From assembly GCA_037833965.1 (NCBI GenBank), contig AP031354.1, positions 22,856,001 to 22,920,000 of the forward strand: a stretch of 64,000 nt of DNA, written 5' to 3'. Numbering within the stretch: position 1 is the stretch's first letter; every line of letters begins with the position of its first letter. The DNA comes from Marchantia polymorpha subsp. ruderalis (taxonomy: Eukaryota > Streptophyta > Marchantiopsida > Marchantiales > Marchantiaceae). The notes beneath the pieces are model-generated. The model did not search any database and was not told the origin of the DNA. It saw only the letters and a list, made by a program, of their open reading frames with translations. The translations under genes were made by a program, and so were the position numbers. Positions 1 to 33,298 of the stretch are shown piece after piece.

Positions 1-1051
1 ATTCCACCTCAATGCCTTTGGTTCTAGACAATGAGTCCGATCTAGTGAATAGACTCCTTATGCCTAGCGAGCTTTTGCCTTGATTTATCCTCATCAAGGT
101 TTTACGCACTTGAGTCTTGCGTGCATTTTGGAAAAAAAATCATAAAATATAAAACTTGTTATTACCGATATCTTCACATAGGCTTAGATATGATATTCTT
201 TAAATTCAATATGACACGATATTATTTTTAATGTGTAAAGATAAATTTGTTGAAAAAATGTAGAAATCATCAAAACAATTGAACTTATATAATTAATGAT
301 TTACATATTTGAAATTCTTTTGTTATGTTACTATTTGTATCCACACATCAATATATCGAGATCAAAATAGCATTTGTTGTGTCAATTTTAGTTTTAGAAA
401 AGTTAAACCATAGATGGCTATATGGCGTCCATTCAGGAAAAAACTGAGAATTTACAGCGCATCTTACCTGCTCTAGGAGAGCCGCACAAGAAGAGTCGAC
501 CAGCTTTTGCATCTCCAAATGGTAAGTTGGCTTCTAGGAACACGGACATGTAGACAGCCCGCTTCTGGTTCTGCTGTAACGCCTCTTGAATCTGCGCCGC
601 CTTTCCGTCTCTTGCCCACGATGTTCCTGAGACGTCGATTTCCTGGAGAGCCAAGTTCACTCGCAGGACCCCCATCAGGTCCTGAACGCCTCCTCGTCCG
701 ACAAATCCAAGTGAGTGAGGTGGCTCCCTCGCATGCACCGAAGCATATCCTCCCATACTCCCTTCGAAATATATTTGCTTCGAACAGATAATTCCAGGCT
801 CTTCGGGATTGAAGTTTCTCCCGTTTTCCCATTCATAAGAAGTATCATCTTAAAAGTACTAAAAGTGTTGGCTGTGTGAACATACACTTTCAGAAGGAGA
901 GACTTTAAGGATTTGATTTCCCCGTGCAGTACCCTACCTAATAGGTTTAATGATAACATCACTTCATGGTCTTTCGTAGGTTGGAGTTCAAGATCCACTG
1001 TGGGGTTCTTCACTTGAGCAAGAGCTTCTATTGACTTCCAATCATCGTTTT
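1..1051 (-). pseudogene. LRR-ROCO-like gene, 3' portion (broken; continues off left edge)
   Basis: This is the downstream part of a minus-strand leucine-rich-repeat protein with a Roc-type GTPase domain. Reading down from 1051, the frame continues that of 6469-7416 exactly once the 5.4-kb element and one copy of its GTTTT duplication are removed. LRR-like text such as SLKSLLLKVYV and LTHLDLSDEEAF runs to a TGA at 675. A single-base loss near 682-685 shifts the frame, and the sequence then carries on as DLMGVLRVNLALQEIDVSG to the P-loop start GSPRAG. A GT donor (467/466) opens an intron of about 347 bp. The next exon (120 down to 1) starts with codons for KTQVRKTL, which completes the Walker A motif GSPRAGKT. 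The intron ends in AC rather than AG. Family knowledge: LRR-Roc proteins with this P-loop are abundant in bryophytes and lycophytes. The insertion, frameshift and odd acceptor together argue for a pseudogene. Sequencing error could explain the frameshift alone. Confidence 0.75.
1047..1051. repeat. Target-site duplication, left side of copy 1 (GTTTT)
   Basis: GTTTT directly precedes the element's first base (1052). The same five bases directly follow its last base, at 6469-6473. The duplicated bases belong to a coding exon of the LRR-ROCO gene. Confidence 0.85.
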
Positions 1052-1399
1052 TGTGGTACCCCACTTTTGGCAATTTTGAGAAAATTAAAACATTTTTGGA
1101 AAACTGTACCCTGGCAGCATTGTAAATAGCCTTCGGTACATCAAAACAGAGTGAATCCGGAAGATCGCGGGGATTCTCGAGGGATCTTGTAGAATCTGGG
1201 ATTTGGGGTGCAGCAGTAAGGACAGGCACCACCCTCCCTGCGAGCTCTGCAGTTAGGATCTCTACGGCGCAAGGCGCAAAACCCGCCTTCGGAGGTTGCG
1301 TCCGCGGCTGTAGGGAAACCCTCCATAATTAGGTCAACCCTCGGGCGCCTTGACCAAGTTAGGATCCCGTTGGAAAGAGCTCGACGCACTGATTCCAAC

Positions 1400-2290
1400 G
1401 AGTCCAAGAACGCTTGGAACGGATGAGGACTTAGGGAGTTATCACTATTGGAAGAAACGGAGGCGGTCGCCTACGGCGGAAAGAGTTCGCCACCGGCGCG
1501 AATTCCGCCTACGCGGAAGGGGGAATCAAGTTTTGTCCTATGCGCGGACGAAGGCGTTCGCCTGTGCACAGGCGAAGTAGGGTTAGGGAAGGCGCGAAGT
1601 GCGCCTACGCACAGGCGCTCGCCTGTGCACAGGCGCTTCGGCGTCGGCGGAAAATCCGCCTTGGGCCCTAGAAATGCGCCTTGTGAGGTAGAAAGTGTAC
1701 GGCGCCTTCCGCGCCAGCGCGGCGCCGCGTACGTTGGAAGAGCCGCCAGAGTAATCAAATCGGTACGGACCATGCGGACGGGAAGGGTGGATGCGCTCTT
1801 GGACGGACGGAGTTGCGGCGGCGGAAGCGCCGACGAAGAGACAAGGAACGGACAGACTGGACGGAGACGGCTGACCACGGTCAACGCCTTCCGCGCCAGC
1901 GCGACGTAGCGCACGGAATTCGCCTGCGCACAGGCGAACGCCTGTGCACAGGAGGATGAAGTTCCGTGCCGGCGGAGAATCCGCCGAGGCTCCTGCCTGC
2001 GCACAGGCAGGAGTTGAACTTTTGTCCGACATGCGGACACACGCGTCAAGGCAGGGGGGGATTGGCCGAGGGGCGATACGAACAAGTGTACCGCGCAAGG
2101 CGGAAAACTCGCCTTCGGCGCTACGCCCCCATGTCCGCAGGGTAATACGCTCGCGGAGTTCAAATCCGCCAATTCGAGCGTGAGAGTTTAATCGACGACG
2201 GCGGAGCGTGAAGCCGCGCGTGAGAGCGGAGACCGTTCCAGCGTACAGCCGGCGCGGCCATCAAGTGAGACGTTCTTCACGAGCAAGAGC
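1400..2290. repeat. Palindrome-rich 5' region of element copy 1
   Basis: The region is GC-rich and crowded with short palindromes and inverted pairs. CCTGTGCACAGG occurs at 1561-1572, 1622-1633 and 1941-1952, with variants such as CCTGCGCACAGG. GGCGGAAAATCCGCC-type and TTCCGCCTACGCGGAA-type hairpins lie between them. The same layout recurs in copy 2 at about 8800-9690. The role is unknown: possible protein-binding sites, or simple expansion of a self-complementary word. Confidence 0.6.
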
Positions 2291-2295
2291 CGACC

Positions 2296-5200
2296 ATGAC
2301 CTTCGACCGGGCGGCGGAGAACGTCCCGTTCTTGAATTTGCGATTCCAATCTCTTGTGCGCGCTGCGCGCATCCATCTGCTGGCTGCGGAACATTCTCGA
2401 CGTCGTCGCACAGGAGATTTCTTGTTGATTGAGGGAGAAGTGAGTGCGAGTGATTTGGAATTGAGGGCGATTAGAGTTTGCCGAGAGAGAAAGAAACCCG
2501 GGCGGTGCGGAATTAGAATGAGCGGGCGAGCGAACCCCAGGAACGCAATGACGAGACCGAGCAGATTGCGGATGGTGCCACTTCGCCTACCGCAGAACGG
2601 GCTGCGCGCTTTTGAGGAGCGCTTAATAGCAAGAAAGCTCGATTTCTTGCTATGGGGATGGAATTACATCTGTGCGAATATGGTGCGCGAGTGGCTAGAG
2701 CCACAGGGACCACCCTCGCGCGGATTGCGTCCGCATGTTGACCGGTGGACAGTCCAAGATTGGGCGCAGGCGTTGGGAAGATGTGCTGGCATGCCAGGGC
2801 ATCTCCTTTTCGACAGTGAGAGCATCAAGGTGACCAAGCAAGAAGAGGCGCAATTTGTGGAGCTGTTCAAGACCGGGAGGTCTACCAAGAATGGGTACAG
2901 GACCCGTGATTACAAGGATCGATTTCGCCGGACTTTGTCCGCGGCGCTGATGCAATTACTGCAGCCGCACCGCGCCTGCTACATCACATTGTGGCAGGTC
3001 TCTTTTGTGGAGTGCGTCATCGAGGGAACTCCAATTCACTGGGCGAGCATCCTACACAGGGTGATGCGAGAGCACGCGTTTGAGGAGAAGGGGGGAACTC
3101 TAAACCACCTTTCTCCTTTCCTCATCAATTTTTATCGACAGCGGAATTGTTTGACAGCGGCGGAGCTTGAACATTTTCCGCCATTGTCCATCGACCATCC
3201 CGGGAAGTATGTGCGGGAGAACGAGGTCGACACTGATGCAGAGGAGTCACCGACTTCTACCCCATCAAGACGGAGGGACGAAGGGAGACACACTCCTGCA
3301 GCACGAGTGCCGCGGAAGCGGCGATGGAGGGAAGAGTCTCAAGAGGAGCAGCATCAAGAACCCTCTGCTCCCATTCGACCGCGGCCGCTGTGCGAGCCAT
3401 ACAGCCGGCCGAAGCAGAAGGCACGCAGACTGGTGTTACCAGCCGACAGTGCGGACACGGCGACAATTGCGACGGAGATAGGAAGTGCGTCGCCAGAGGA
3501 GCATGAGGAAGCGCGGACGACCGCAGGAGCAACGGGCCACGCTGCAACCTCGACGGGAGAGAGGCCGCCTACGGGCCAAGGGCCTCCGGAGTTACCACGT
3601 GCGATGCGGACAGATGTTCCGTTTGCGCACAGACGAGCCTCCGCGGACGGACGAGCCTCCGCGGACCGGCGAACACAAGTGGACGTGGATCTACGCTTAC
3701 GCGTGGGAAGGAGCAGTCCGCCTGTGCACAGGCGCTCACCTGTGCACAGGTCGCCTGTGCACAGGTCGCCTGTGCACAGGACGCCTCCACACGTGCCGCC
3801 TGTGCACAGGCAAGAATCACCCCCGTTCCAACGTAGGAAGGGGAAGGAGCCGGCGGAAGAACCGCCTACGAGACACCGGCCCTCGGGGCCAGACCCTCCG
3901 GCGCACCACGCGCCGCAATTTGCGCCTTCGGCGCCAGGGCCTTCGAGCCGAGGAGATACGAGCAGAGAGCGTGCGGAGGCCGCACCATCGGCGGGAAGTC
4001 CACCGATAGATGCGCCTTCGGCGGTAGGGCCTATAGGCCAAGGAACATCGGGCGTGCGGCCCCCGGCCATGTCGCCTTCGGCGATAGATGTCCGCGGCGC
4101 TACGCCTGCGGCGGACAAGGCGCCGGCAAATGCGCCTGCGCACGGGCCGGGCACAGCCCCCACGGACCGATCAAGGGAGCAGCAACAGACGGAGGAGCGG
4201 AGTGACTGTCCGCGGGATGAAATCTCGATGCGCGATGCGCAATCAAACCCCGCGCAGTCACCCTCCGCTTGATCGCCTTCGGCGGCGGACGACGGCGGCA
4301 AAGAGGATGCGGTAGACAATCAACAAGCGAGCGACGGGGATGCCGCACGGGTACATTTGCCTTCCGCCTTAGACATTTTGGCGACGAGCAGCGAGGCTGC
4401 AGCCGTGCCTTCGCAGGCAGCACACGTCGATGACGTGCAGCCCCACTCGGGGCAGTCGCCGACGCAATCAATGGCGACTGAAATTCTCCACTCGGATGAT
4501 GACGACGGAGGCTCCACGGAAGAAATGTCAGGAGCAGAAGACACCGAGGAGGAGGAGGAGGAAATTGTTGGAGCACCGGCGGCGGCGCTCTCTGAGCAGG
4601 TGATTCCGTTGCTGCGGTACTTGGATCGCAAGGTCGATAAATACGCCGACCCACTCCAGCCGGGATCTTACATCGAGTTAGTGCGCAGGCGGACTCGCAC
4701 TAAAGTCCACACCAGCAAGCTATTAGCTAGAGTGGACCAGGAGTTGAAGGAATTGAAGGAGAAGCATGCGTGCTTGTGGGGTCAGTACAAGCTTAATCAG
4801 AAATTCTACAAGCACTCCGAGAAGATGAAGGATGAGAAACTGGACGAGCTCACCAAGGAGCAGGTGAAGGTCAAGGAAGCACTCATTTCTGAGCAGGCCC
4901 AGAATCGGATTTTGTCAGAGGAGCTCGTGCGACAGACGCGGTTGTTGGAACAATGTCAGCTCGCACGGCAGGCGGATGAAGAGTTAATCCGCAGGTTACA
5001 GTCAGAGTGTGGCGAATTGAGAGCGCAACGTGCTGAAGCCGAATCGCAATTAGTGATAATTGAAGAGGATCGCAGGAAGGAGGCGGATCGCACGAAGGTG
5101 GAGACGGCGAGGCGAGTCGCCCACTGTCTCAAGGGCTACGCCCACTGGGAAGTGAAGGCGCAGGAGAAACTCACACTGCGTGAGTTTGAATTGCGCGCAG

Positions 5201-5451
5201 CCGGGTTGTTGTCAGGCGACAGTAGGAGTCGGCGGAAGGTAGCAAAGAAGCTCGATGCCTTTCTGTCGAAGGCACAGGATACCATGTCCGCCCTCGAAGT
5301 GGAGGTGTCCGCGGCGTTGCAGCGGTTGGGACTGCGCAGTCGAGCGGAAGATTGGCAGGGTAGGGAGTTAGTGCGCGGCAGTCGGCCGCGCAGGAGACGT
5401 AGTACAGGTTCCGCGGAGTGTAGTGTAGCGTGGTTCCGTGCAGGCGTGTAG
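2296..5451 (+). pseudogene. Long element ORF, copy 1, with one premature stop
   Basis: This is the counterpart of the intact 1041-codon ORF of copy 2. It is open from the ATG at 2296 to a TGA at 4270-4272, where copy 2 has CGA (Arg), so a single C-to-T change truncates the product at 658 codons. Beyond the stop the same frame stays open to 5451. Reading through would give 1051 codons, ten more than copy 2, because the proline/histidine repeat PVHR has two extra units (30 bp). No other frame-breaking change is visible, so the inactivation looks recent. A protein starting at the internal ATG at 4357 would still contain the acidic stretch and the coiled coil. See the copy 2 ORF for a description of the protein. 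Confidence 0.75.
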
Positions 5452-5487
5452 CGTAGTGCAGTGTAGTGCTAGGTAGGACTTAGAAGG

Positions 5488-5496
5488 TATAAAATA
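5488..5496 (+). promoter_or_regulatory. TATA box of element copy 1
   Basis: TATAAAATA lies 37 bp after the ORF stop and about 980 bp before the element's 3' end. It is conserved exactly in copy 2 (12857-12865). A promoter this close to the 3' end and pointing outward is the arrangement expected of an LTR (U3-R-U5). It could also drive transcription into the DNA to the right of each insertion. No transcript evidence is available. Confidence 0.55.
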
Positions 5497-5869
5497 GTTC
5501 CATGTGTTTTGCCTGGGGTTCTTTCCCATCAGAAGTGCAGATCAGGAACCCATTTCCTTTGCGTGTTTGTGTCCTTGAGTTCTGTCACCACGCACGAGGA
5601 GTTACAACTTAGCGTTCCGCATTTTGTAGCTGAAGGCCTTCGGCCGAATGTTCAGAGCTAGTACATTGGTTAGAGACTTGAGTAGTTCGGATCTGCACCT
5701 GCGGGTGACTGCCGATGCTCAGAGCCAGTGACTAGTTAGATACTTGAACAGTTTCGCCCCTACACCTTCGAGTGTTTCTTTCTGATTGTACTCCTTGGGA
5801 TTTTTCCCCTGAATGCCAAAGTGAAGTTTTGCTACTTCGTGTAAGCCTTGGTTGTAAATTCAGGTTACG

Positions 5870-6242
5870 CTGCAGCAGGTGCCTTGAGGGTAACCCCTGT
5901 AGTATTTCTGGGAATGACAAGTGCCTGAGAATTCAAACTCTTCAATAGACTGTTGTTGTGTTACTGGAATGTTTCTCAGTAAGTCCTTCAGTGCGGACCT
6001 GTGTTCTCTGCGCGTTCTGTGAGTTGAGAGTGTTGTTCACCGCGTAGAAGTGACTTCGATCCGAAGTAGGCAGTCCAAACCGGGTTTCCTACACTAGCAG
6101 CAAGCTAGTGGAAGCGTTGTAAAAGCCGGAGTTGGAAGTCACTGCCCGCAGCTTTGCCGAGTGTGCTCGTGAGAGACATTCCCCCTGAAATCTTGAAGTA
6201 GAGGTCCTAACGGATCTCTGGGTTGTGTTTCTGTAGTTTCAG

Positions 6243-6273
<31 letters not shown>

Positions 6274-6372
6274 GCTGCACTATGCGACCTCCGAGTGCGC
6301 TCCGAGTGGACACTTGCAGTATTTCTGGGAGTGACAGTTGCCTGAGAATTCAAACTCCTCAATAGTCTGTTA
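5870..6372 (+). repeat. Internal direct repeat in the 3' non-coding region of copy 1
   Basis: A block of about 55 bp around 5900-5955 (GTATTTCTGGGAATGAC, then TGCCTGAGAATTCAAACTC) recurs with few changes around 6317-6372. Each copy is preceded by GTTACGCTGCA. The same pair is present in copy 2. A (GT)14 tract at 6243-6270 precedes the second block; copy 2 has (GT)10. Confidence 0.6.
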
Positions 6373-6468
6373 AAACGTGACACTTTGTACCCTGTGTGTT
6401 CCTCTGTCCCTGTGGGTTCGACCTTTCTACCACTATATTGCAGTTTTAGCCTTTAGTGGGTTATTACA

Positions 6469-7416
6469 GTTTTCGAAGTGACGCAACACAACATGTATAC
6501 GTGTCGTTATAACATTGTCACGTATGACTTCGCCGAGCTGGTGCCATTCCTCAGGACTCATCAAAAAGTGGAACAACACCACTTCCTTCAATGATGTGTT
6601 GGAAATAAGAATTTCCCTTATACAGTCTCCGAGTCCATCACTGTCATCCAGCCAAAGACGTTCAATGGATCGGTTGCGATCGTCTCCGGCCAATGCTTTC
6701 AGCAACAAGGACCCTACCCAATACACAGTATCTGTGCCAAAAATTGACGCCAAGGTCAATTCTTTCAACGACGAGCTCCGGATCAACGCCTGGGATAGGA
6801 TTCCAACGGTCTCGTCCTCCATGTCATAATCCCTTAAAAGCAACGTTTCTAATAGAGGAGCACTGTAGATCATGTCAGCCACATGCTGCACCGAACTCGA
6901 GTCTATACATACTTCTAAAGATTTGAGTTGTCCTCGCAGTCCTGAGGCGAGATTCAAGTAACATCTGGCACTCAATCCGTAATTGTCTATAACCAAATCT
7001 GTTGCGCTAGAGGTATTCAGAATTCTCCCCACATGTAAACACAAGCTCTCCTTTTCCGCATCTGAACCGTCGAGGGCCCAAATCTCTATCCGTTGTAGAA
7101 TGGTGCTATTCCTGAAACCTCTTAAGACTAGGTCCCACTCGCTTGCCGTTAACCTCGATATCTCTCCCCCACACAAATCAGACTTGGCTAGAGTAAGAAC
7201 GTTGCTGCAGTTGCCGATTGCCTCCAGCACTCGAAGGCGCACTTGGCTTCGCCATCCTATGACCGTCGAGAGCGATGCACGCTCCGGAAAGAACTCTCGA
7301 AATTCTGGCTCGCTTAAACTGGGAAGCCGCGTTATAGGCTCGCCTTGTCCTTCCAGACGCTGTACAAGGTCCTGGATGGCGGAGGGAAGCTCCGGTTCCT
7401 CGTGTGCGGAGTCCAT
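6469..7416 (-). pseudogene. LRR-ROCO-like gene, 5' portion (interrupted by the 5.4-kb element)
   Basis: This is the N-terminal part of the LRR protein. The start is taken as the ATG at 7414-7416 (MDSAHEEPELPSAIQDLVQR). An in-frame ATG at 7477-7479 is an alternative that would add 21 residues. About 316 codons stay open to 6469 and contain irregular leucine-rich repeats, for example LETLLLRDYDMEDETVG, SLKELTLASIFG and SLKEVVLFHFLM. There is no signal peptide or membrane segment, so the protein would be intracellular. At 6469 the frame runs into the end of the inserted element and would append about 11 foreign residues before a TAG. Without the element, ...RHFEN joins ...DDWKSIEALAQVKN in frame, which shows that the insertion hit a coding exon. 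Function is inferred only from family resemblance: LRR-Roc GTPases, possibly signalling or immunity related. Confidence 0.72.
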
Positions 7417-7479
7417 TTCCCGTGTCGCCAGTTCAGTAGTGCGACTGACGATGTACACACCTGCACCTTCCTTTCTCAT

Positions 7480-8444
7480 CTCCTCTCTCTTCTCTCCTTC
7501 TCTTCCTTCTTCTCTTCTTCCTATCCAGATCGAGCGCTGCCGCTGGGCGGAGTGAAGATGCGGAGAACCTCGTGTCCCTTCCGACGCTGACTGGGAAGAA
7601 GAATATCAAATATGCCGAGCTCTTGCACGGCCTCTCTTCTTCTGCTCTGCCTCTCTCTGAACGCAACAACGTCGTCGCAGCGTCAGCAGCGGCAGCGACC
7701 TAGCGTCTGACGAGCGAACCAGCGAGTATCCGAAATCAAGTTCTTAGCAAAGATGGCGCGATGTGAAAGCTAAATGTCATAGAATGCATGATATAGCAGA
7801 TTATCAGATGTGACGAACTCTGAGTAGTGTAAAAACTGGATGTAAACTTGTACTGGGATACTGCGAGTCTAGCTGCATCAAGACCAACGGGAAGACAGAC
7901 ACTACGATGGCTAGCACGGGGAAAAAGCATGCATCCTCTTCAATCAGATCTTCTCGTTGTATGGTGTGAGCGATCAAGGTAACGACAACGTTCGAACACA
8001 AAAATCGTGTTCTTTCATACTCTGTGATTGGAACATGGTGTTAGAAGGTCATATTAGATCTTGACTTTGTTGTGCAAGCGGAGAGGAAACGTGGGTGATT
8101 GCGTCAGTGTGATTATGTACTCGATGACGTCACATTGACAACTTCCATTACATCTTTCTTCTTTATTTATCCATTTATCTGGGATGTTCGATCTGTTCGA
8201 GCAAGTGGACGTATTTTGACAGCTGAGTGGCACATGCGTAGTCAGCTGTAATAAGCATGTAACGTTTTTTCTTACTTTTAACCCAGAACAGTTGTGTACA
8301 TTATTGTAAATAACTTGTAGGTTCAGGAAAAACTGATAAGATTTTTGGGATTTTACTAACTATAATATCGAAGAACTTTGTACAGAGGATACCTGCACTC
8401 GAGGTTATCAACTGCTGGTATGATTGTTCTTCTACCCCAGCTGT
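7480..8444. other. Intergenic DNA between the LRR gene 5' end and element copy 2
   Basis: This holds the presumed promoter and 5' untranslated region of the interrupted LRR gene. It includes a pyrimidine-rich CTTCTC tract at about 7480-7525 on the plus strand. No further coding region is supported and no clear TATA box was chosen. Confidence 0.4.
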
Positions 8445-8449
8445 CAAGT
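8445..8449. repeat. Target-site duplication, left side of copy 2 (CAAGT)
   Basis: CAAGT precedes the first element base (8450) and is repeated directly after the last one, at 13833-13837. It differs from the duplication flanking copy 1. Confidence 0.85.
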
Positions 8450-9694
8450 TGTGGTACCCCACTTTTGGCAATTTTGAGGAAATTAAAACATTTTTGGAAA
8501 ACTGTACCCTGGCAGTATTGTAAATAGCCTTCGGTACATCAAAACGGAGTGAATCCGGAAGATCGCAGGGATTCTCGAGGGATCTTGTAGAATCTGGGAT
8601 TTGGGGTGCAGCAGTAAGGACAGGCACCACCCTCCCTGCGAGCTCTGCAGTTAGGACCCCTACGACGCAAGGCGCAAAATCCGCCTTCGGAGGTCGCGTC
8701 CGCGGCTGTAGGGAAACCCTCCATAATTAGTTCAACCCTCGGGCGCCTTGACCAAGTTAGGGTCCCGTTGGAAAGAGCTCGACGCACTGATTCCAACGAG
8801 TCCAAGAACGCTTGGAACGGATGAGGACTTAGGGAGTTATCACTATTGGAAGAAACTGAGGCGGTCGCCTACGGCGGAAGGAGTTCGCCACCGGCGCGAA
8901 TTCCGCCTACGCGGAAGGGGGAATCAAGTTTTGTCCTATGCGCGGACGAAGGCGTTCGCCGGTGCACAGGCGAAGTAGGGTTAGGGGAGGCGCGAAGTCC
9001 GCCTACGCACAGGCGCTCGCCTGTGCACAGGCGCTTCGGCGTCGGCGGAAAATCCGCCTTGGGCCCTAGAAATGCGCCTTGTGAGGTAGAAAGTGTACGA
9101 CGCCTTCCGCGCCAGCGCAGCGCCGCGTACGGCGGAAGAGCCGCCAGAGTAAATCAAATCGGTACGGACCATACGGACGGAACGGGTGGATGCGCTCTTG
9201 GACGGACGGAGTTGCGGCGGCGGAAGCGCCGACGAAGAGACAAGGAACGGACAGACTGGACGGAGACGGCTGACCACGGTCAACGCCTTCCGCGCCAGCG
9301 CGACGCCGCGCACGGAATTCGCCTGCGCACAGGCGACCGCCTGTGCACAGGAGGATGAAGTTCCGTGCCGGCGGAGCATCCGCCGAGGCTCCTGCCTGCG
9401 CACAGGCAGGAGTTGAACTTTTGTCCGACATGCGGACACACGCGTCAAGGCAGAGGGGGATTGGCCGAGGGGCGGTACGAACAAGTGTACCGCGCAAGGC
9501 GGAAAACTCGCCTTCGGCGCTACGCCCCCATGTCCGCGGGGTAATACGCTCGCGGAGTTCAAATCCGCCAATTCGAGCGTGAGAGTTTAATCGACGACGG
9601 CGGAGCGTGAAGCCGCGCGTGAGAGCGAAGACCATTCCAGCGTACAGCCGGCGCGGCCATCAAGTGAGACGTTCTTCACGAGCAAGAGCCGACC

Positions 9695-12600
9695 ATGACC
9701 TTCGACCGGGCGGCGGAGAACGTCCCATTCTTGAATTCGCGATTCCAATCTCTTGTGCGCGCTGCGCGCATCCATCTGCTGGCTGCTAAACATTCTCGAC
9801 GTCGCCGCACAGGAGATTTCTTGTTGATTGAGGGAGAAGTGAATGCGCGTGATTTGGAATTGAGGGCGATTAGAGTTTGCCGAGAGAGAAAGAAGCTCGG
9901 GCGGTGCGGAAGTAGAATGAGCGGGCGAGCGAACCCCAGGAACGCAATGACGAGACCGAGCAGATTGCGGATGGTGCCACTTCGCCTACCACAGAACGGG
10001 CTGCGCGCTTTCGAGGAGCGCTTAATAGCAAGAAAGCTCGATTTCTTGCTATGGGGATGGAACTACATCTGTGCGAATATGGTGCGCGAGTGGCTAGAGC
10101 CACAGGGACCACCCTCGCGCGGATTGCGTCCGCATGTTGATCGGTGGACAGTCCAAGATTGGGCGCAGGCGTTGGGAAGATGTGCTGGCATGCCAGGGCA
10201 TCTCCTTTTCGACAGTGAGAGCATCAAGGTGACCAAGCAGGAAGAGGCGCAATTCGTGGAGCTGTTCAAGACCGGGAGGTCTACCAAGAATGGGTACAGG
10301 ACCCGTGATTACAAGGATCGATTTCGCCGGACTTTGTCCGCGGCGCTGATGCAATTACTGCAGCCGCACCGCGCCTGCTACATCACATTGTGGCAGGTCT
10401 CTTTTGTGGAGTGTGTCATCGAGGGAACTCCAATTCACTGGGCGAGCATCCTGCACAGGGTGATGCGACAGCACGCGTTTGAGGAGAAGGGGGGAACTCT
10501 AAACCATCTTTCTCCTTTCCTCATCAATTTTTATCGACAGCGGAATTGTTTGACAGCGGCGGAGCTTGAACATTTTCCGCCATTGTCCATCGACCATCCC
10601 GGGAAGTATGTGCGGGAGAATGAGGTCGACACTGATGCAGAGGAGTCACCGACTTCTACCCCATCAAGGCGGAGGGACGAAGGGAGACACACTCCTGCAG
10701 CACGAGTGCCGCGGAAGCGGCGATGGAGGGAAGAGTCCGAAGAGGAGCAGCATCAAGAACCCTCTGCTCCCATTCGACCGCGGCCGCTGTGCGAGTCATA
10801 CAGCCGGCCGAAGCAGAAGGCACGCAGACTGGTGTTACCAGCCGACAGTGCGGACACGGCGACGATTGCGACGGAGAAAGGAAGTGCGTCGCCAGAGAAG
10901 CATGAGGAAGCGCGGACGACCGCAGGAGCAACGGGCCACGCTGCAACCTCGACGGGAGAGAGGCCGCCTACGGGCCAAGGGCCTCCGGAGTTACCACGTG
11001 CGATGCGGACAGATGTTCCGTTTGCGCACAGACGAGCATCCGCGGACGGACGAGCCTCCGCGGACAGGCGATCACAAGTGGACGTGGATCTACGCTTACG
11101 CGTGGGAAGGAGCAGTCCGCCTGTGCACAGGCGCTCGCCTGTGCACAGGACACCTCCACACGTGCCGCCTGTGCACAGGCAAGAATCACCCCCGTTCCAA
11201 CGTAGGAAGGGGAAGGAGCCGGCGGAAGAACCGCCTACGAGACACCGGCCCTCGGGGCCAGACCCTCCGGCGCACCACGCGCCGCAATTTGCGCCTTCGG
11301 CGCCAGGGCCTTCGAGCAGAGGAGATACGAGCAGGGAGCGTGCGGAGGCCGCACCGTCGGCGGAAAGTCTGCCGATAGATGCGCCTTCGGCGGTAGGGCC
11401 TATAGGCCAAGGGACATCGGGCGAGCGGCCCCCGGCCATGTCGCCTTCGGCGATGGATGTCCGCGGCGCTACGCCTGCGGCGGACAAGGCGCCGGCAATT
11501 GCGCCTGCGCACGGGCCGGGCACAGCCCCCACGGACCGATCAAGGGAGCAGCAACAGACGGAGGAGCGGAGTGACTGTCCGCGGGATGAAATTTCGATGC
11601 GCGATGCGCAATCAAACCCCGCGCAGCCACCTTCCGCTCGATCGCCTTCGGCGGCGGGCGACGGCGGCAGAGAGGACGCGGTAGACAACCAACAAGCGAG
11701 AGACGGGGATGCCGCACGGGTACATTTGCCTTCCGCCTTGGACATTTTGGCGACGAGCAGCGAGGCTGCAGCCGTGCCTTCGCAGGCAGCACACGTCGAT
11801 GACGTGCAGCCCCACTCGGGGCAGTCGCCGACGCAATCAATGGCGACTGAAATTCTCCACTCGGATGATGACGACGGAGGCTCCACGGAAGAAATGTCAG
11901 GAGCAGAAGACACCGATGAGGAGGAGGAGGAAATTGTTGGAGCACCGGCGGCGGCGCTCTCTGAGCAGGTGATTCCGTTGCTGCGGTACTTGGATCGCAA
12001 GGTCGATAAATACGCCGACCCACTCCAGCCGGGATCTTACATCGAGTTAGTGCGCAGGCGGACTCGCACTAAAGTCCACACCAGCAAGCTATTAGCTAGA
12101 GTGGACCAGGAGTTGAAGGAATTGAAGGAGAAGCATGCGTGCTTGTGGGGTCAGTACAAGCTTAATCAGAAATTCTACAAGCACTCCGAGAAGATGAAGG
12201 ATGAGAAACTGGACGAGCTCACCAAGGAGCAGGTGAAGGTCAAGGAAGCACTCATTTCTGAGCAGGCCCAGAATCGGATTTTGTCAGAGGAGCTCGTGCG
12301 ACAGACGCGGTTGTTGGAACAATGTCAGCTCGCACGGCAGGCGGATGAAGAGTTAATCCGCAGGTTACAGTCAGAGTGTGGCGAATTGAGAGCGCAACGT
12401 GCTGAAGCCGAATCGCAATTAGTAATAATTGAAGAGGATCGCAGGAAGGAGGCGGATCGCACGAAGGTGGAGACGGCGAGGCGAGTCGCCCACTGTCTCA
12501 AGGGCTACGCCCACTGGGAAGTGAAGGCGCAGGAGAAACTCACACTGCGTGAGTTTGAATTACGCGCAGCCGGGTTGTTGTCAGGCGACAGTAGGAGTCG

Positions 12601-12820
12601 GCGGAAGGTAGCAAAGAAGCTCGATGCCTTTCTGTCGAAGGCACAGGATACCATGTCCGCCCTCGAAGTGGAGGTGTCCGCGGCGTTGCAGCGTTTGGGA
12701 CTGCGCAGTCGAGCGGAAGATTGGCAGGGTAGGGAGTTAGTGCGCGGCAGTCGGCCGCGCAGGAGACGTAGTACAGGTTCCGCGGAGTGTAGTGTAGCGT
12801 GGTTCCGTGCAGGCGTGTAG
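9695..12820 (+). CDS. Element-encoded 1041-aa protein of unknown function (intact copy)
   Basis: I recognise no named family with certainty. In order: an Arg-rich N terminus (about 1-95); a compact, apparently folded region (about 95-290) with many Trp, Tyr and Cys, including LWGWNYICANMVREW, FVELFKTGRSTKNGYRTRD and LSPFLINFYRQRNCLTAAE; a long low-complexity Pro/Arg/Ala/Glu region (about 320-700) with SPVHR-type repeats near 475-500; an acidic run DDDDGG near 723 followed by E-rich sequence; and a charged coiled coil (about 780-985) before a basic tail. The 95-290 region vaguely resembles the 'putative plant transposon protein' domains found beside plant retroelements (inference, unverified). 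No DDE, RNase H, reverse-transcriptase or zinc-knuckle motif is visible. A degenerate relic at 48157-48219 keeps part of the FVELFK...DYK motif, which supports a real protein family. Codon use is GC-rich, unlike the surrounding DNA. Confidence 0.7.
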   Translation: MTFDRAAENVPFLNSRFQSLVRAARIHLLAAKHSRRRRTGDFLLIEGEVNARDLELRAIRVCRERKKLGRCGSRMSGRANPRNAMTRPSRLRMVPLRLPQNGLRAFEERLIARKLDFLLWGWNYICANMVREWLEPQGPPSRGLRPHVDRWTVQDWAQALGRCAGMPGHLLFDSESIKVTKQEEAQFVELFKTGRSTKNGYRTRDYKDRFRRTLSAALMQLLQPHRACYITLWQVSFVECVIEGTPIHWASILHRVMRQHAFEEKGGTLNHLSPFLINFYRQRNCLTAAELEHFPPLSIDHPGKYVRENEVDTDAEESPTSTPSRRRDEGRHTPAARVPRKRRWREESEEEQHQEPSAPIRPRPLCESYSRPKQKARRLVLPADSADTATIATEKGSASPEKHEEARTTAGATGHAATSTGERPPTGQGPPELPRAMRTDVPFAHRRASADGRASADRRSQVDVDLRLRVGRSSPPVHRRSPVHRTPPHVPPVHRQESPPFQRRKGKEPAEEPPTRHRPSGPDPPAHHAPQFAPSAPGPSSRGDTSRERAEAAPSAESLPIDAPSAVGPIGQGTSGERPPAMSPSAMDVRGATPAADKAPAIAPAHGPGTAPTDRSREQQQTEERSDCPRDEISMRDAQSNPAQPPSARSPSAAGDGGREDAVDNQQARDGDAARVHLPSALDILATSSEAAAVPSQAAHVDDVQPHSGQSPTQSMATEILHSDDDDGGSTEEMSGAEDTDEEEEEIVGAPAAALSEQVIPLLRYLDRKVDKYADPLQPGSYIELVRRRTRTKVHTSKLLARVDQELKELKEKHACLWGQYKLNQKFYKHSEKMKDEKLDELTKEQVKVKEALISEQAQNRILSEELVRQTRLLEQCQLARQADEELIRRLQSECGELRAQRAEAESQLVIIEEDRRKEADRTKVETARRVAHCLKGYAHWEVKAQEKLTLREFELRAAGLLSGDSRSRRKVAKKLDAFLSKAQDTMSALEVEVSAALQRLGLRSRAEDWQGRELVRGSRPRRRRSTGSAECSVAWFRAGV
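11118..11179 (+). repeat. In-frame CCTGTGCACAGG repeats in the element ORF (copy 2)
   Basis: The palindromic 12-mer occurs at 11120-11131, 11138-11149 and 11168-11179. It encodes PVHR units. Copy 1 has five (3721-3732, 3739-3750, 3754-3765, 3769-3780, 3799-3810). The same word occurs in the untranslated 5' region of both copies. Confidence 0.75.
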
Positions 12821-12856
12821 CGTAGTGCAGTGTAGTGCTAGGTAGGACTTAGAAGG

Positions 12857-12865
12857 TATAAAATA
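12857..12865 (+). promoter_or_regulatory. TATA box of element copy 2
   Basis: TATAAAATA sits at the same relative position as in copy 1, after the ORF and about 1 kb before the element's 3' end. Confidence 0.55.
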
Positions 12866-13837
12866 GTTCCAGGCGTTTTGCCTGGGGTTCTTTCCCAAAC
12901 TCAGAAGTATAGATCAGGAACCCATTTCCTTTGCGTGTTTGTGTCCTTGAGTTCTGTCACCACGCACGAGGAGTTACAACTTAGCGTTCCGCATTTTGTA
13001 GCTGAAGGCCTTCGGCCGAATGTTCAGAGCTAGTACATTGGTTAGAGACTTGAGTAGTTCGGATCTGCACCTGCGGGTGACTGCCGATGCTTAGAGCCAG
13101 TGACTAGTTAGATACTTGAACAGTTTTGCCCCTACACCCTCGAGTGTTTCTTTCTGATTGTACTCCTTGGGATTTTTCCCCTGAATGCCAAAGTCAAGTT
13201 TTGGTACTTCGTGTAAGCCTTGGTTGTAAATTCAGGTTACGCTGCAGCAGGTGCCTTGAGGGTAACCCCTGTAGTATTTCTGGGAATGACAAGTGCCTGA
13301 GAATTCAAACTCTTCAATAGACTGTTGTTGTGTTACTGGAATGTTTCTCAGTGAGTCCTACAGTGCGGACCTGTGTTCTCTGCGCGTTTTGTGAGTTGAG
13401 AGTGTTGTTCACCGCGTAGGAGTGACTTCGATCCGAAGTAGGCAGTCCAAACCGGGTTTCCTACACTAGCAGCAAGCTAGTGGAAGTGTTGTAAAAGCCG
13501 GAGTTGGAAGTCATTGCCCGCAGCTTTGCCGAGTGTGCTTGAGAGAGACTTTCCCCCTGAAATCTTGAAGTAGAGGTCCTAACGGATCTCTGGGTTGTGT
13601 TTCTGTAGTTTCAGGTGTGTGTGTGTGTGTGTGTTACGCTGCACTATGCGACCTCCGAGTGCGCTCCGAGTGGACACTTGCAGTATTTCTGGGAGTGACA
13701 GTTGCCTGAGAATTCAAACTCCTCAATAGTCTGTTAAAACGTGACACTTTGTACCCTGTGTGTTCCTCTGTCCCTGTGGGTTCGACCTTTCTACCACTAT
13801 ATTGCAGTTTTAGCCTTTAGTGGGTTATTACACAAGT

Positions 13838-14485
13838 ATGTGAATGCATGCACAGTTTGGAGGTCTTTAGACCACAAACATGAAATCGTTATCGAATTTT
13901 GATCGTGCTAAGAACACTTTTGCTTGCTTATCGCTTGGTACACAAAACGACACAAACAGCATGCTCTGGTAATTTGCCATGTACTGTGGTTACTTTGTTG
14001 TGTGTTTTCACCGTTGTTACCGCCAAAACATGTTTTGTTTTGTCTGGATATGCTCGCTGAGGTTTATATGCAATTGCCAGCACTAAGTTCACGACTTTTA
14101 CCTGCAGTGTCTTTCGGTGTCGTCTTCCGCTAAATTTTCCAGGCCCGACAATAGACCCGATCCTGTTCTAATACGTGGATGTGTCCCATTATCCATTTTC
14201 TCAGCTGTGTGCCCTTGTCCACAATCGATAAACAGCTGCAGGAAGAAGAGTAAATGCCGCTAAACAATAACTGTTGATTGGTGACTTCCTGCAATGCACT
14301 GAAGTGAGAAGTCCGTCTGACAGTGTTATTCAAAATGATATAGTGGAAACAACAGACCTTTCTCGAATCTTGCCCGCATTTTCTTCTTTTGTCTTTCCGG
14401 TTGTCCATGGCGGACCCACTGATTTTGTTGAATCCGCAAAGCCACAATGTTAGAACGTGCATACAGAAACCACCTAGTCAATTGA
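13838..14485. other. Intergenic DNA right of element copy 2
   Basis: Unique-looking sequence with only short, unconvincing open frames. I see no gene, and no repeat shared with other parts of the window. Confidence 0.35.
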
Positions 14486-14725
14486 TGGCAGGCTGTTCAC
14501 CAGTTCAAAGCTCACCGCATCACCAATCTCGCCAGGTATGCTGCCGTTTCTGCAGACCTGCACGACGTTGCCAGCAAAGCAATCTCAAGGATGAAGAATC
14601 AAATACGTCACAAACTAAATCGTGAGCACAACAATGTGCTCAAAATCATGGCTATGAGAAAACACATAATCTTCATGTTTGGCGAAACTTACGGGGACCT
14701 TGATGAAGAATTTGGATTGTTGTAG
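14486..14725 (+). pseudogene. Open 79-codon fragment without a start codon
   Basis: The frame between a TGA (14483-14485) and a TAG (14723-14725) stays open with plausible amino-acid composition, for example FKAHRITNLARYAAVSADLH and MRKHIIFMFGETYGDLDEEF. It has no upstream ATG in frame and no obvious family. It lies just left of the dispersed duplication at 14754, so it may be a fragment of an old coding exon. Chance is possible. Confidence 0.25.
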
Positions 14726-14753
14726 AAATCTATGTACTTTTGAAAATAAATTA

Positions 14754-15922
14754 ATTACGGCTTTCATGCACGTACCACTTGTCTGATCGATAAAGTCCTT
14801 GTATTTTCTCAACAAACTGTGAATACCCAGATTTTTGTTTATCAAATCTTCACCCCTTTTCTTCTTTGGCACTGTACACTGCTCAGGTCTTCCCACAGAA
14901 CGGCTTCCTTCCGCTTTATCCTTCAAGTTCTCTTTTGCACAGCAAGTTCACGTTCTTCAATAACGTTTTTCCTTGTCGTATCTTCCAGGCAGAAGTACTG
15001 AGCAGTCTCCAGTACAAGGCTAGACATTCTCCTCCAGATAGGTAAGAGGTGGACATCCAGAATAGCAGGGTTTATCAATGGAAGTCTGGAACAAAAGCGT
15101 TTCGGGCTTTACCTGAACACAGATATAGGACCCTTACCTGTTAATTTCGTTGGTAATTTCGTGTGAGCAGAACATTTGACCATCAGTTTCGGTGTATTTT
15201 CACAAAAATCTAAACTGATTGATCACCCGTACATATGTGGAATGGCTGTGGAATCTGCGTATAGGTGAGCCACACCGGTGACCACTCCTGATGCTAATTT
15301 TCTAAGTCTTTATACTGTTGGATGTACGACTTATCTTGCTTATAGTCTAATTATCAACATGGGCTTTTGGGTAGAGTAAAATAAGATCAACGCATTGTAA
15401 TACTCGTCGTCTTATGGTTTCTAGCATCCTTTCCAGTCTGAAGTCTCAAAATTCACTGAGTGGTACCCAGTGTGATCAGAGGCATTATGCATCGGTGATA
15501 ATCATCATGTTTTACCACCGTGGCATCAAAACTCCTAGCGCAGGCGAAAGCAACCTCGTTGCAAATTTCTGGAAGGCATTAGTTTTGGAAGCTTACTTGC
15601 AGAAGAATTTGCAACGACTTTGCTTCCGCAAACAGACCTTTACCAGGTCCAAGTAACTGGGCAGGTATGTCGTTTTGTCCACATAAACAATAGCTAATGG
15701 TATGAGCCTGAAAATACTTGAGGACCATATCTCTCCTGATTGAGTTCTGCTGCTATGAGTTATGCTAGAATGAACAGAATGAGTAGTAGAAGAAGAGCCG
15801 ATGGGAGGAAAGGAAGAAACAGGAGGAATAAATTGATGACTGCTTGAGAGTCCAGTGGGAGATTCTCCAAAAACTAAACCGGTTCGGAGTTTCTTATCAA
15901 CAATAAAGAAACCCTGAATCAA
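14754..15922. repeat. Dispersed duplication, copy A
   Basis: The segment is closely similar to 19529-20407. The match starts at ATTACGGCTTTCATGC and ends near AAGAAACCCTGAATCAA. Copy B lacks about 290 bp corresponding to 14948-15238. Minus-strand frames inside both copies read like eroded coding sequence, e.g. LRTGLVFGESPTGLSSSHQF, with no intact gene. I could not assign a family and found no terminal repeats or target duplication. Confidence 0.6.
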
Positions 15923-18900
15923 GTGTCAAATGCAGATATATTGCCCAGGTCAAGTTCCACAATTAAAGGATTTTAAAATAGGATCCCTCTTCACGTTTTC
16001 TGATAAACTTCTTATGGTAAAGAGAATGATTTTGACAAACATTCCAGCCAAAACAAATCCACTTTGAACAGAAGCAGAAGATTTTTCATCCAGCATCTAG
16101 AATTGTGTTCTTCGAAATCAAAAATGAGAAGAAGAAAACATGGTGGGGCGCTTCAAAACCATAGCCCCTGTTTTATCACACATCAGTGTAAGTGCAGCTT
16201 GCAGAGAAAATTCAAGCTCATTCAACATTCTTCTTGACCAAATCAGGATTTCAGTGGCTAATGAAGAATTAAATGTCTCAGCTTCTGCTGAAATTAGAGC
16301 TAGTGGTTTTCTCTCGAAAGATTTTATAATATCTTTGAAATGGGTTGAATTAGAGTCTTTACAAAAACTTAACATTAATTTACATCAGTCCAATATTACT
16401 GGTTATAATATATCTTTTCTATGTTCAAAAGCTACTTGTTGTCATCGTACAAAGATATGAAATGTGAATAACAGTTCAACGCAGTATTATCCATGTTGGA
16501 TCTTTGAATTCGGGGTTACTCGGTGAAGAAACTAATCTAGATGCTGCTCGTTTTTTTTTTTGGCTTGAACTTGACTGTTGCACCAAATCAAACTTCAGAC
16601 TTTTTTTATCTATTGGACTATTGCCAGTTCAACAATGTCCTAAGCATGAGGAATTGCAATGCAAAGGCTTAAACTACACCGTCCAAGCTGCACTACCTTA
16701 GACGAAGAAACTGTGGTTACCTGTGCGTGCGCTATTTGCTTCCGCATTCTTCAGCCTGTAACTTCATCCACCACACCACACGAACCAACTGTACCCCTGC
16801 AAATATACAAAAGAAATGATTACATAAAGTTAAATGCATGACATATGAATAAAGTGTTGCATGAGTTTCTTACTAATTTTGTACAAACATAAGTATGATT
16901 ACTTTTCACTAGAGGAATTATAAATAAATTGAGTCACAAATATCTCATTTATTTATATAATAGGTTTATATTAAAAAAAACTATACTTCATATTATTATC
17001 ATTGATATGAATTATATAATTCAAAGTATACTCAATAGGATCTAAAACTTACACTTCATCTTTATCGGGAGGTCAGTTTGAGACCACTGCTTTAAAGAAG
17101 AAGAAGATTATACCTTTTAAAAAACGTCAAAATAAGAGGGTTCTTTCTTTCATTTTGCTATAACGTCCATTCTTGGCAAATGTGAAACCTGATCAATCAA
17201 AAATTCTAATGGCATGTCCACTTCTATTGGCTTGCAACTTAACCTGAGCTTCTTGATAACCGAAAACGGCGCGTTTCCCGCCCTTTTGTCTAGCTGGGTG
17301 GCTGTCCAGTTCCTTTGACACCTAATTGTATAGCCTCCAATACTTTTGAGCGCTGCTGGACAATCCTCATAGATTGGATTGCATACTTGGTTACCCGATG
17401 CTATGGACAATCGAATACAGCTTTCTGTTTTTCACTAAACTTTTTTAAAACGCTTGATACTGATATTAAACATTTGGCTTTAGTCTTTGATGAAAAGGTT
17501 CCTTGCCGAACATGTTTACAGCCAAGTTAGGAAGGTTTTAAAAAACATCAGAAACAAAAAAAAGATTAAAATTAAAAGAAAAATACGTATAGAAAAATAT
17601 TCAAACAATTATGCATCATACCATCAATCTTTTTTGAAAGAACAATTGCTAAATATACATTCTGATTGAGCATATAAGTTATATAATATATTATAATTGG
17701 CAAAGTGAGTAGAAAATACAATAATGATGATTGATTCACAGCGCTTAAACTATAAAACAATTATTGGCCACGAAATCACGATTATAGAAAATGATGCACA
17801 ATATTTTTTCTAGTAACCAGCACAATATTGAAAATTCAATCAATCTTTCAATTTTCATTAAATTTTTGTTTTAAAAATAATTATCTCATTAGAAAAATAC
17901 TCAAATACATAACAAAACATTTAGTCTGAATTTTTCAAACCATTTAAGGATTTATTTCAAACAAATTTTGAATTGAAAATCAAATAAAAAATAAATTTGA
18001 AGATTGAAGATTTAATACTTCATTGAACTTATAAAAATTTGCTGCAGGATAGATTATGCTCAAGATTTTCCCCACGTCACATCAACGAACTCATAATTAA
18101 GAAAGTTTAATAGGATATCTCATTCGTTTTGTTTATTAAATTCGGTTTTCATCTCAATATTACCTCAAAGGAAGGTAATCTATGAATGTTCTAAACCACA
18201 AAGATGATTACAAGTTGAGACGCAGTAGAGAGAGGCCACAATTGCGTTTCACAATGTTCGAGTTGAGAAAACCGAGATGGTGTACTGGAGATCTGAGATA
18301 AGCATCCACTTGTCCCTTTTGCAAGGGACAAGAGGATAGCTTCAATCCGAAGCATGTCAAGCGCGTTGATTGTGCAATAGTGCCACTTGTTTTCTGAAGT
18401 TGTACGTTGCATCTGTTTCTGTATATATTGATTTTTTAGGGTTGATTGACACTGGCCACCTAACTAACAAAAATTGAATCTCAACTAGGACAGATGAAGG
18501 CAACAACAGATATATATACTTGTATATATATTAGTCAGGAGTGTCACAGACAACCTTTTCTTTTAGTCTACACATCGATTGATTGATCGTGAGATATCGA
18601 AGGTCCTTTACTTGTATGTAGCCCCAGGGACGGTTGAGAACTTTTCAGAGAGCTACAAGTAGAAACAAGAGAAGAGGGAGGGAATAATGATTTGTCGAAA
18701 GATAACAAGTTGCAATTTAGAAATATATTCCCTACATTGAGTTCCAAGAAAGTTTGACCTTTAGCTGCTGAGCATGAACTTCCTCAAGAGTGTGGCTGGA
18801 GATCGAAAATTCTGGTAGATGCTCGAAGAGAAGACGCAAATGTGAGATCGAAGCGATTTATCGCCTCACGTTCATGTCGTCATTGAATCAGCATTACATG

Positions 18901-24615: not shown

Positions 24616-24888
24616 CAAGAGGAAAATTTGACCACTGCGCTGTGGATGGCATCGGCAAGTTGAGGAACTGTTCGTGAGCTGAGGCCGGCCATACTGATCC
24701 GCCCGTCAAGAGGAAAATTTGACCACTGCGCTGTGGATGGCATCGGCAAGTTGAGGAACTGTTCGTGAGCTGAGGCCGGCCCTACTGATCCGCCCGTCAA
24801 GAGGAAAATTTGACCACTGCGCTGTGGATGGCATCGGCAAGTTGAGGAACTGTTCGTGAGCTGAGGCCGGCCATACTGATCCGCCCGT
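24616..24888 (-). repeat. Three tandem 91-bp copies of the aminotransferase 3' end
   Basis: Units start at about 24616, 24707 and 24798 with a period of 91 bp and are almost identical (A/C difference near GGCCGGCC.TACTGATCC). Each encodes [10 protein letters not shown]...AVVKFSS followed by TGA. Only the unit nearest the gene body (24798-24888) is used. The other two lie in the 3' untranslated region. Because 91 is not a multiple of three, readthrough would change frame. Confidence 0.9.
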
Positions 24889-29190: not shown

Positions 29191-29223
<33 letters not shown>

Positions 29224-33035: not shown

Positions 33036-33040
33036 CTCTT

Positions 33041-33293: not shown

Positions 33294-33298
33294 CTCTT

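What the first reader, a model, noticed from the sequence alone, without database searches (positions are those of the whole stretch)
1047..13837. Two independent insertions of an undescribed-looking 5.4-kb element, not a tandem duplication
Both copies share exact outer ends (TGT...ACA, a 20-bp terminal inverted match of 14/20) but have different perfect 5-bp duplications, GTTTT and CAAGT. Their size difference of 34 bp is fully explained by four indels. They sit in the same orientation only 2 kb apart and contain no recognisable transposase, integrase or reverse transcriptase.
Basis: seen in the sequence. Interest (0 to 1): 0.88.

Follow-up and report, generated by a model that had tools for sequence, protein, structure and literature searches.

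The report
Solo retrotransposon LTRs carrying a gene
The two 5.4-kb repeats are leftover ends (solo LTRs) of an abundant liverwort retrotransposon; what makes them unusual is that the end repeat itself carries a long protein-coding frame, which can survive when the rest of the element is lost.

Summary
In detail: window 1052-6468 and 8450-13832 are two separate insertions with shared exact ends and different perfect 5-bp duplications. They are not a complete element: each is a solo LTR of a Ty3/gypsy retrotransposon. Elsewhere in the same 241-Mb genome the repeat flanks a 5.8-kb internal region with a PBS-like site, gag, RT, RNase H, integrase and a purine tract. The genome is Marchantia polymorpha or very close. 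Patterns find 2,961 LTR starts and 1,386 LTR-internal junctions. Copy A interrupts a host reading frame.

The unexpected part is inside the LTR: a sense ORF of about 1,050 codons in U3, open (at least 1,010 codons) in 16 of 25 LTRs, with a deficit of amino-acid changes and mostly in-frame indels. The 55 relatives found are from M. polymorpha, bar one of unnamed source; one diverged relative also sits before an LTR end. MMTV sag is a similar arrangement. Four paper searches aimed at this found no plant precedent. The ORF's function is inferred only. Pol follows a leaky-type UAG-CAA-UUA stop.

The parts
1047..1051 (.). left 5-bp target duplication GTTTT of copy A
1052..6468 (+). copy A: solo LTR (5,417 bp), TGT...ACA
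6469..6473 (.). right 5-bp target duplication GTTTT of copy A
2296..4272 (+). U3 ORF of copy A, ends early at 658 codons (broken copy)
3719..3810 (+). 15-bp tandem repeat (unit CGCCTGTGCACAGGT, 5.9 copies) inside the ORF; the aligned 30-bp A/B length difference lies here
5488..5494 (+). TATAAAA, candidate core promoter of LTR A (U3/R boundary just downstream; inferred)
   Evidence: one such motif in each of 25 LTRs
8445..8449 (.). left 5-bp target duplication CAAGT of copy B
8450..13832 (+). copy B: solo LTR (5,383 bp)
13833..13837 (.). right 5-bp target duplication CAAGT of copy B
9695..12820 (+). U3 ORF of copy B, open for 1,041 codons (conserved N-terminal region, proline-rich variable middle, C-terminal coiled coil)
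12857..12863 (+). TATAAAA of LTR B, 36 bases after the ORF's stop codon
6474..7605 (-). upstream part of a host reading frame (leucine-rich by eye, no Pfam family above cut-off) interrupted by copy A
678..1051 (-). downstream part of the same host reading frame; leaving copy A and one GTTTT out gives one frame open for 502 codons (stop to stop)

Best explanation
The two repeats are solo LTRs left after two independent insertions of one Ty3/gypsy LTR retrotransposon family of a Marchantia liverwort. Each element inserted by integrase, making a 5-bp duplication; later the two LTRs of each recombined and the internal gag-pol region was lost, leaving one LTR between the duplications (the loss step is inferred from the anatomy). 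The LTR is about 5.4 kb because its U3 carries a sense ORF of about 1,050 codons that ends 36 bases before the TATA box in copy B. The ORF is therefore present twice in a full element, lies downstream of pol at the 3' end of the genomic RNA, and stays behind in a solo LTR. The ORF looks like a real gene kept by selection. My best guess for its role is an accessory nuclear protein of the retrotransposon (coiled coil, basic clusters by eye), helping nuclear entry, integration or escape from silencing; that last step is inference only, at about 0.3.
For: Exact 5-bp duplications in 12 of 13 copies with flank on both sides; 40 copies examined (38 of the 39 other places plus the two window copies), 13 dropped because the 3' end was not recognised in the stretch; of the other 27: 13 flank-flank, 5 flank-internal, 5 internal-flank, 3 internal-internal, 1 with the right side only. 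Unit on contig C4: LTR 5,445 bp, internal 5,796 bp, next LTR differing at 3 of 5,445 positions. Internal region: PBS-like TGGCGCCGCTGCCGGGGACA, gag (PF03732, 1.1e-12), two zinc knuckles, aspartyl protease (1.2e-4, just under its curated cut-off), RT, RNase H, integrase, purine tract before TGTGG. Genome patterns: 2,961 LTR 5' ends, 6,087 3' ends (shorter pattern), 1,386 LTR-internal and 786 internal-LTR junctions; reversed-pattern controls 0. Copy A splits a host frame. ORF: at least 1,010 codons in 16 of 25 LTRs; longest + strand frame in 300 shuffles of LTR B 288 codons, in 300 of its ORF segment 299. Non-synonymous to synonymous, relative to expectation: 0.47 for shared variants (43:42, one-sided binomial p 5e-4), 0.71 for singletons (136:89, p 0.007); nonsense variants 8 against 13.6 expected; indels in frame 8 of 13 in the ORF, 2 of 16 outside (p 0.008). 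30 of 42 full-length genome matches have no internal stop (44 best of 13,091 candidates scored). 55 related proteins at E<=0.01. A diverged relative (57% to P0007, C4:17934898-17935869) is followed by TATAAAG, 77-79% identical R/U5-like sequence and the same LTR terminus.
Against: Solo formation itself is not observed. No transcript or protein evidence for the ORF. The selection test pools 25 young LTRs, some of them not independent (L020, L021 and L052 come from tandem units; L032 and L040 share the same downstream flank), counts variants and not events on a tree, and treats them as independent. Protein identity between diverged families (about 40-60%) is not by itself more than their 77% identity in R/U5 might give under neutral drift; long open frames and the codon pattern carry the argument. 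9 of 25 LTRs have a broken ORF, copy A included; the 42 genome matches are the best-scoring ones, include copy B itself and five from one tandem array, and 12 of them have a stop. Most diverged matches contain stops. For the diverged relative only 1.4 kb on the 3' side could be fetched, so its LTR start and duplication were not seen. L022 has flank on both sides without a duplication.
Confidence: 0.9

Rival explanations
1. An independent 5.4-kb non-autonomous element that moves by itself and is only sometimes found beside gag-pol.
For: Many copies have exact ends, 5-bp duplications and no internal region; the 3'-end pattern is commoner than the LTR-internal junction (6,087 against 1,386, with patterns of different stringency).
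Against: The repeat sits in direct orientation on both sides of a PBS...PPT internal region with gag and pol, junctions are regular, and ends, duplication length and TATA position fit an LTR. Solo LTRs explain the lone copies without a new mechanism.
Confidence: 0.04
2. The long ORF is a by-product of high G+C and short repeats with no coding role.
For: The LTR middle is about 60% G+C, contains 15-bp repeats, and antisense frames of up to 415 codons also occur there.
Against: Dinucleotide shuffles never exceed 299 codons; fewer amino-acid changes than expected and in-frame indels; related frames in M. polymorpha gene models and in diverged copies; start codon context GACCATGA.
Confidence: 0.1
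3. A local tandem duplication of a 7.4-kb segment made the second copy.
For: Same orientation, 2 kb apart, 97-98% identical; B's nearest of the 25 LTRs compared is A.
Against: Different flanking duplications; no repeat family of 100 bases or more outside the two copies in window 1-16000; A is closer to copies on other contigs than to B.
Confidence: 0.01
4. The U3 ORF is an env-like or captured gene used for movement between cells and not a nuclear accessory protein.
For: Position downstream of pol is where env-like extra ORFs of plant elements sit (PMC7264820, PMC6317226).
Against: Nothing decisive. No Pfam family is shared by the 56 members scanned: five families hit one member each (RNase H in P0057 at 1.4e-12, the others weaker); no solved-structure relative. 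Membrane segments were not tested, and the N-terminal model is too poor to decide (pLDDT 37).
Confidence: 0.15

Closest known systems
Plant non-chromovirus Ty3/gypsy LTR retrotransposons (OTA superclade: Athila, Tat, Ogre, Retand)
   Same: gag-PR-RT-RH-INT order, 5-bp duplications, very large LTRs (PMC6317226, section 13 read: LTRs up to about 5 kb in non-chromoviruses), tRNA-Asp-like PBS (tRNA-Asp is listed there for non-chromoviruses; that this PBS fits tRNA-Asp is recalled), no chromodomain seen.
   Different: The extra ORF lies in the LTR and not in the internal region; Pfam reported no second RNase H in the one element scanned, whereas Tat elements have one; gag-PR and pol are separated by one in-frame UAG. 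No RT tree was built, so the lineage is not assigned.
MMTV sag (superantigen gene in the U3 of a betaretrovirus LTR)
   Same: A gene located mostly in the U3 of the LTR, so that solo LTRs keep it (PMC4667437, passages read: LTRs 'ordinarily non-coding'; 490 of 527 shortlisted sag contigs had no hit to other retroviral genes, taken as solo LTRs).
   Different: Unrelated element class, host and protein; the ORF here is about 1,050 codons and lies wholly within the LTR; no immune function is implied.
Extra ORFs of plant LTR retrotransposons (eORF/aORF; Grande gene23, Retand ORF4, SIRE and Athila env-like ORFs)
   Same: Long non-gag-pol ORF, unknown function, mostly no known domain.
   Different: In the review (PMC7264820, parts 1-2 of 3 read) and the survey (PMC6317226, section 13 and passages read) such ORFs are placed upstream or downstream of gag-pol in the element; I saw none described within the LTR.

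Membership tests
Ty3/gypsy LTR retrotransposon | direct terminal repeats with TG...CA ends flanking an internal region | tested here: met
Ty3/gypsy LTR retrotransposon | gag, protease, then RT-RNaseH-integrase in that order | tested here: met
   Pfam; the protease matches (1.2e-4, 0.001) are below their curated cut-offs, the gag, RT, RNase H and integrase matches above
Ty3/gypsy LTR retrotransposon | PBS after the 5' LTR and PPT before the 3' LTR | tested here: met
   the PBS-like site starts 22 nt after the LTR end in the three distinct junctions printed (L041 differs after TAAGAAGCC); the fit to tRNA-Asp is recalled, no tRNA gene was compared
Ty3/gypsy LTR retrotransposon | short target duplication of fixed length | tested here: met
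   5 bp in 12 of 13 two-flank copies
solo LTR | one LTR between the target duplication, no internal sequence | tested here: met
Tat clade | additional RNase H domain | tested here: inconclusive
   none reported by Pfam in one element; a diverged domain could be missed
chromovirus | chromodomain after integrase | tested here: not met
   no chromodomain at E up to 0.1 in the one element scanned
OTA superclade | position in an RT/INT tree | not tested
   no reference set was at hand
MMTV-like sag arrangement (works like) | complete coding frame inside U3, kept by selection | tested here: met
   with the limits given under evidence against
MMTV-like sag arrangement (works like) | expression of the LTR gene | not testable with these tools
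   no RNA or protein data

The most novel reading that the evidence does not exclude
A plant retrotransposon lineage has placed its accessory gene wholly inside its LTR, so an insertion doubles the gene and LTR-LTR recombination, the usual way a genome disposes of such elements, leaves an intact gene behind. The many solo LTRs in this liverwort would then be a dispersed gene family able to act in trans on the element (or be taken over by the host), kept across long-diverged Marchantia families.
Probability: 0.4. Interest if true: 0.8.

Novelty: new variant of a known kind. Interest (0 to 1): 0.6.

Why it matters
LTRs are taken to be regulatory and non-coding, and solo LTRs to be dead remnants. 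Here most of the LTR is a reading frame, in an abundant family (2,961 LTR starts) of what appears to be a model plant. If solo LTRs express the protein, removal of the element by recombination does not remove its gene, which changes how element-host conflict and co-option should be modelled. There is a practical side: LTRharvest's default maximum LTR length is 1,000 bp (PMC2253517, Table 1 passage), so a 5.4-kb LTR is missed at that setting, and ORFs of this family can be annotated as host genes: 54 of the 55 relatives found are called 'hypothetical protein' in M. polymorpha subsp. ruderalis.

Tried and rejected
Considered a transposon with terminal inverted repeats: rejected, the 14/20 match is what LTR ends can give and the repeat is direct around gag-pol. 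Considered a non-autonomous LARD/TRIM: rejected, the copies have no internal region of their own. Considered a tandem duplication: rejected on the flanks. Structure prediction of the N-terminal region failed (pLDDT 37), so no fold search was run; the C-terminal model is mostly long helix/coiled coil (mean pLDDT 77, pTM 0.31), for which a fold search would mean little. Pfam on the 56 family members gave five families in one member each; PDB by sequence and Rfam on the window gave no match. RNA folding of the PBS spacer and of the stop-codon region was no better than shuffles (z 0.63 and 0.56), so no pseudoknot is claimed. Genome-wide full/solo ratios were not computed; only 40 copies chosen by likeness to copy A were classified. 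One predicted M. polymorpha protein (P0057) joins an RNase H domain to part of the ORF family, but its RNase H is only about 35% identical to this element's, so I drew nothing from it. Papers: ten searches ran; four were aimed at an ORF inside an LTR or at extra ORFs (41, 51, 88, 102; one search found no paper), and their listings showed no plant example; most subscription papers are not in that library. PMC11963269 (Retand) was only searched for six terms; one irrelevant passage came back. PMC3441728 (passages) describes a fungal element with a gag-pol stop that lacks the CARYYA signal.
Full report
1. What was claimed and what is there. Two 5.4-kb repeats lie at window 1052-6468 and 8450-13832, flanked by GTTTT and CAAGT respectively, each duplicated exactly. 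They differ at 107 of 5,379 aligned positions (77 transitions, 30 transversions) plus four indels of 1, 30, 3 and 8 bp that add up to the 34-bp difference. The terminal inverted match is 14/20. The stated facts check out.

2. What the repeat is. The window is contig C5:22856001-22920000 of a 241-Mb, nine-contig genome. A published M. polymorpha subsp. ruderalis protein model (P0007) matches that genome at 100% over residues 340-638 and 93% over residues 71-314, so the genome is Marchantia polymorpha or very close. A 1,001-base query (the GTTTT and the first 996 bases of copy A) had 2,836 candidates, of which 40 were scored; these gave 40 places at 99-100%, the window itself among them, and seven shorter matches at 82-93%. 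Several places are pairs 11.2-11.4 kb apart in one orientation. Between such a pair on contig C4 lies a 5,796-bp internal region. It holds a PBS-like TGGCGCCGCTGCCGGGGACA, a 943-codon gag-protease frame (Retrotrans_gag 1.1e-12, two CCHC knuckles, aspartyl protease 1.2e-4 and just under its cut-off), an in-frame TAG, a 946-codon frame with RT, RNase H and integrase (8.4e-27, 9.5e-33 and 2.8e-12), and GAGGAGGGGGGCA directly before the next TGTGG. The LTRs on either side differ at 3 of 5,445 positions; the left one is itself preceded by internal sequence, so this unit is part of a tandem array. This is a Ty3/gypsy LTR retrotransposon and the repeat is its LTR.

3. Solo LTRs. I fetched 38 of the 39 other places and added the two window copies. 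In 13 of 40 the 3' end was not recognised in the stretch and these were dropped. Of the other 27, 13 have ordinary DNA on both sides, 5 on the left only, 5 on the right only, 3 have internal sequence on both sides (tandem units), and 1 gave only its right side. Twelve of the 13 two-flank copies have an exact 5-bp duplication; the exception (L022) measured 5,598 bp and may end in another copy. Pattern counts over the genome: 2,961 LTR starts (29 bases, up to 2 mismatches), 6,087 LTR ends (20 bases, up to 1), 1,386 LTR-internal and 786 internal-LTR junctions (up to 2), controls 0. A variant LTR end (TTTGG for TTTAG) joined to TAAG occurs 1,839 times with up to 2 mismatches, in part the same places. 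The patterns differ in stringency, so they give no exact solo ratio. The internal region has no blastn match in the window. Leaving out copy A and one duplication gives a minus-strand frame open for 502 codons across the site (the script left out both copies); copy A therefore broke a host reading frame (leucine-rich by eye; no Pfam family above cut-off).

4. The gene in the LTR. Copy B has an open frame of 1,041 codons at 9695-12820. Of 25 LTRs of 5,300-5,500 bp (two of the 27 were left out for length), 16 have at least 1,010 codons: 15 between 1,041 and 1,061 and one of 1,015. The frame begins about 1.24 kb into the LTR, and in copy B ends 36 bases before TATAAAA, a motif present once in each of the 25 LTRs. 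Because transcription of such elements starts just after that box (established knowledge), the ORF lies in U3, in the sense direction, downstream of pol on the genomic RNA. In 300 shuffles of LTR B and 300 of its ORF segment the longest frame was 288 and 299 codons. Among the 25 LTRs, broken ones included, shared variants are 43 non-synonymous to 42 synonymous where 208:96 is expected from the same mutation spectrum (relative ratio 0.47, p 5e-4); singletons 136:89 (0.71, p 0.007); nonsense 8 against 13.6 expected; indels are multiples of three in 8 of 13 cases in the ORF and 2 of 16 outside (p 0.008). These tests ignore the tree, and some LTRs are not independent (tandem or co-duplicated).

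5. Relatives of the protein. One-sequence searches of 5.8 billion proteins found 2 (E up to 0.01) and 3 (E up to 1) proteins, all M. polymorpha subsp. ruderalis. A profile of five found 55 at E<=0.01 among the 7,994 candidates scored: 54 M. polymorpha hypothetical proteins and one from an unnamed source. The conserved parts are an N-terminal region and a C-terminal coiled coil; the middle is variable. No Pfam family is shared and no solved structure matched. In the genome, P0001 gave 13,091 candidates of which 44 were scored; 42 matched over their full length at 98-100% (copy B itself included), 30 with no stop and 12 with one. P0007 gave 12,092 candidates, 69 scored, 166 matches; listed identities run from 35 to 100% and most carry stops. 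For one of these (C4:17934898-17935869, 57%, no stop in that stretch) I could fetch 1.4 kb on the 3' side: after its stop come TATAAAG, sequence 77-79% identical to the matching part of the window LTRs, and the terminus ...GGTGGGTTATTACA followed by AT-rich DNA with no match to the LTR. So the LTR position of the ORF is not limited to the young family, on one example.

6. The gag-pol stop. It is UAG CAA UUA, which fits the CAR-YYA signal that directs leaky termination in tobacco mosaic virus (PMC2194720, passage read). No unusually stable structure was predicted there. Read-through itself is inferred.

7. Mechanism. Shown: LTR retrotransposon, solo LTR anatomy, ORF inside the LTR with coding signatures. 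Inferred: loss of the internal region by LTR-LTR recombination; expression of the ORF from a 3' subgenomic RNA or an internal promoter; a nuclear accessory role. No TATA[AT] motif lies on the + strand in the 1.24 kb upstream of the ORF in copy B, which does not help the internal-promoter idea.

8. Against what is known. Plant elements with extra ORFs are well described, with the ORF upstream or downstream of gag-pol (PMC7264820 parts 1-2 of 3 read; PMC6317226 section 13 and passages read). LTRs up to about 5 kb are known in non-chromoviruses (PMC6317226). A gene in an LTR is known from MMTV (PMC4667437, passages read). The combination in a plant did not appear in the listings of the four searches aimed at it. 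In PMC9985172 (passages read) 222 full-length LTR elements are reported for M. polymorpha subsp. ruderalis, far fewer than the 1,386 LTR-internal junctions here; LTR length limits may be one reason (LTRharvest default 1,000 bp, PMC2253517), but which settings that study used was not checked, and junctions are not all full-length elements.

9. Verdict.

Noticed in passing
L010:2990-3020 (C4:11309989-11310019): gag-protease and pol are separated by UAG CAA UUA, a TMV-type leaky stop context, shared across the family (742 sites with up to 3 mismatches; the 100 listed are exact).
   Followed up: partly
L010:86-107: 22-nt spacer between the LTR end and the PBS-like site with a small inverted repeat (AAGAAG...CTTCTT); solo copies end exactly at ACA, so the end left by reverse transcription would have to be trimmed by about 22 nt (inferred). 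Folding was no better than shuffles.
   Followed up: partly
G000:C2:31345294-31390058; also C3:20847437-20880739: Head-to-tail arrays of LTR-internal units at constant spacing (11,184 bp four times; 11,092 bp three times), as if amplified by unequal exchange.
   Followed up: no
G000:C1 around 2.34, 2.74 and 3.10 Mb: A pair of LTR-internal junctions about 6,966 bp apart recurs three times with similar neighbours, suggesting large segmental duplications on contig C1.
   Followed up: no
window 24797-26116 (-): 438-codon frame with an aminotransferase class I/II domain (PF00155, 8e-87) and a 432-codon open frame on the opposite strand.
   Followed up: partly
window 24615-24889: Three copies of a 91-bp tandem unit (98% matches) overlapping the end of the aminotransferase frame.
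   Followed up: no
window 28001-34000: A+T-rich block (21-26% G+C) between G+C-richer stretches.
   Followed up: no
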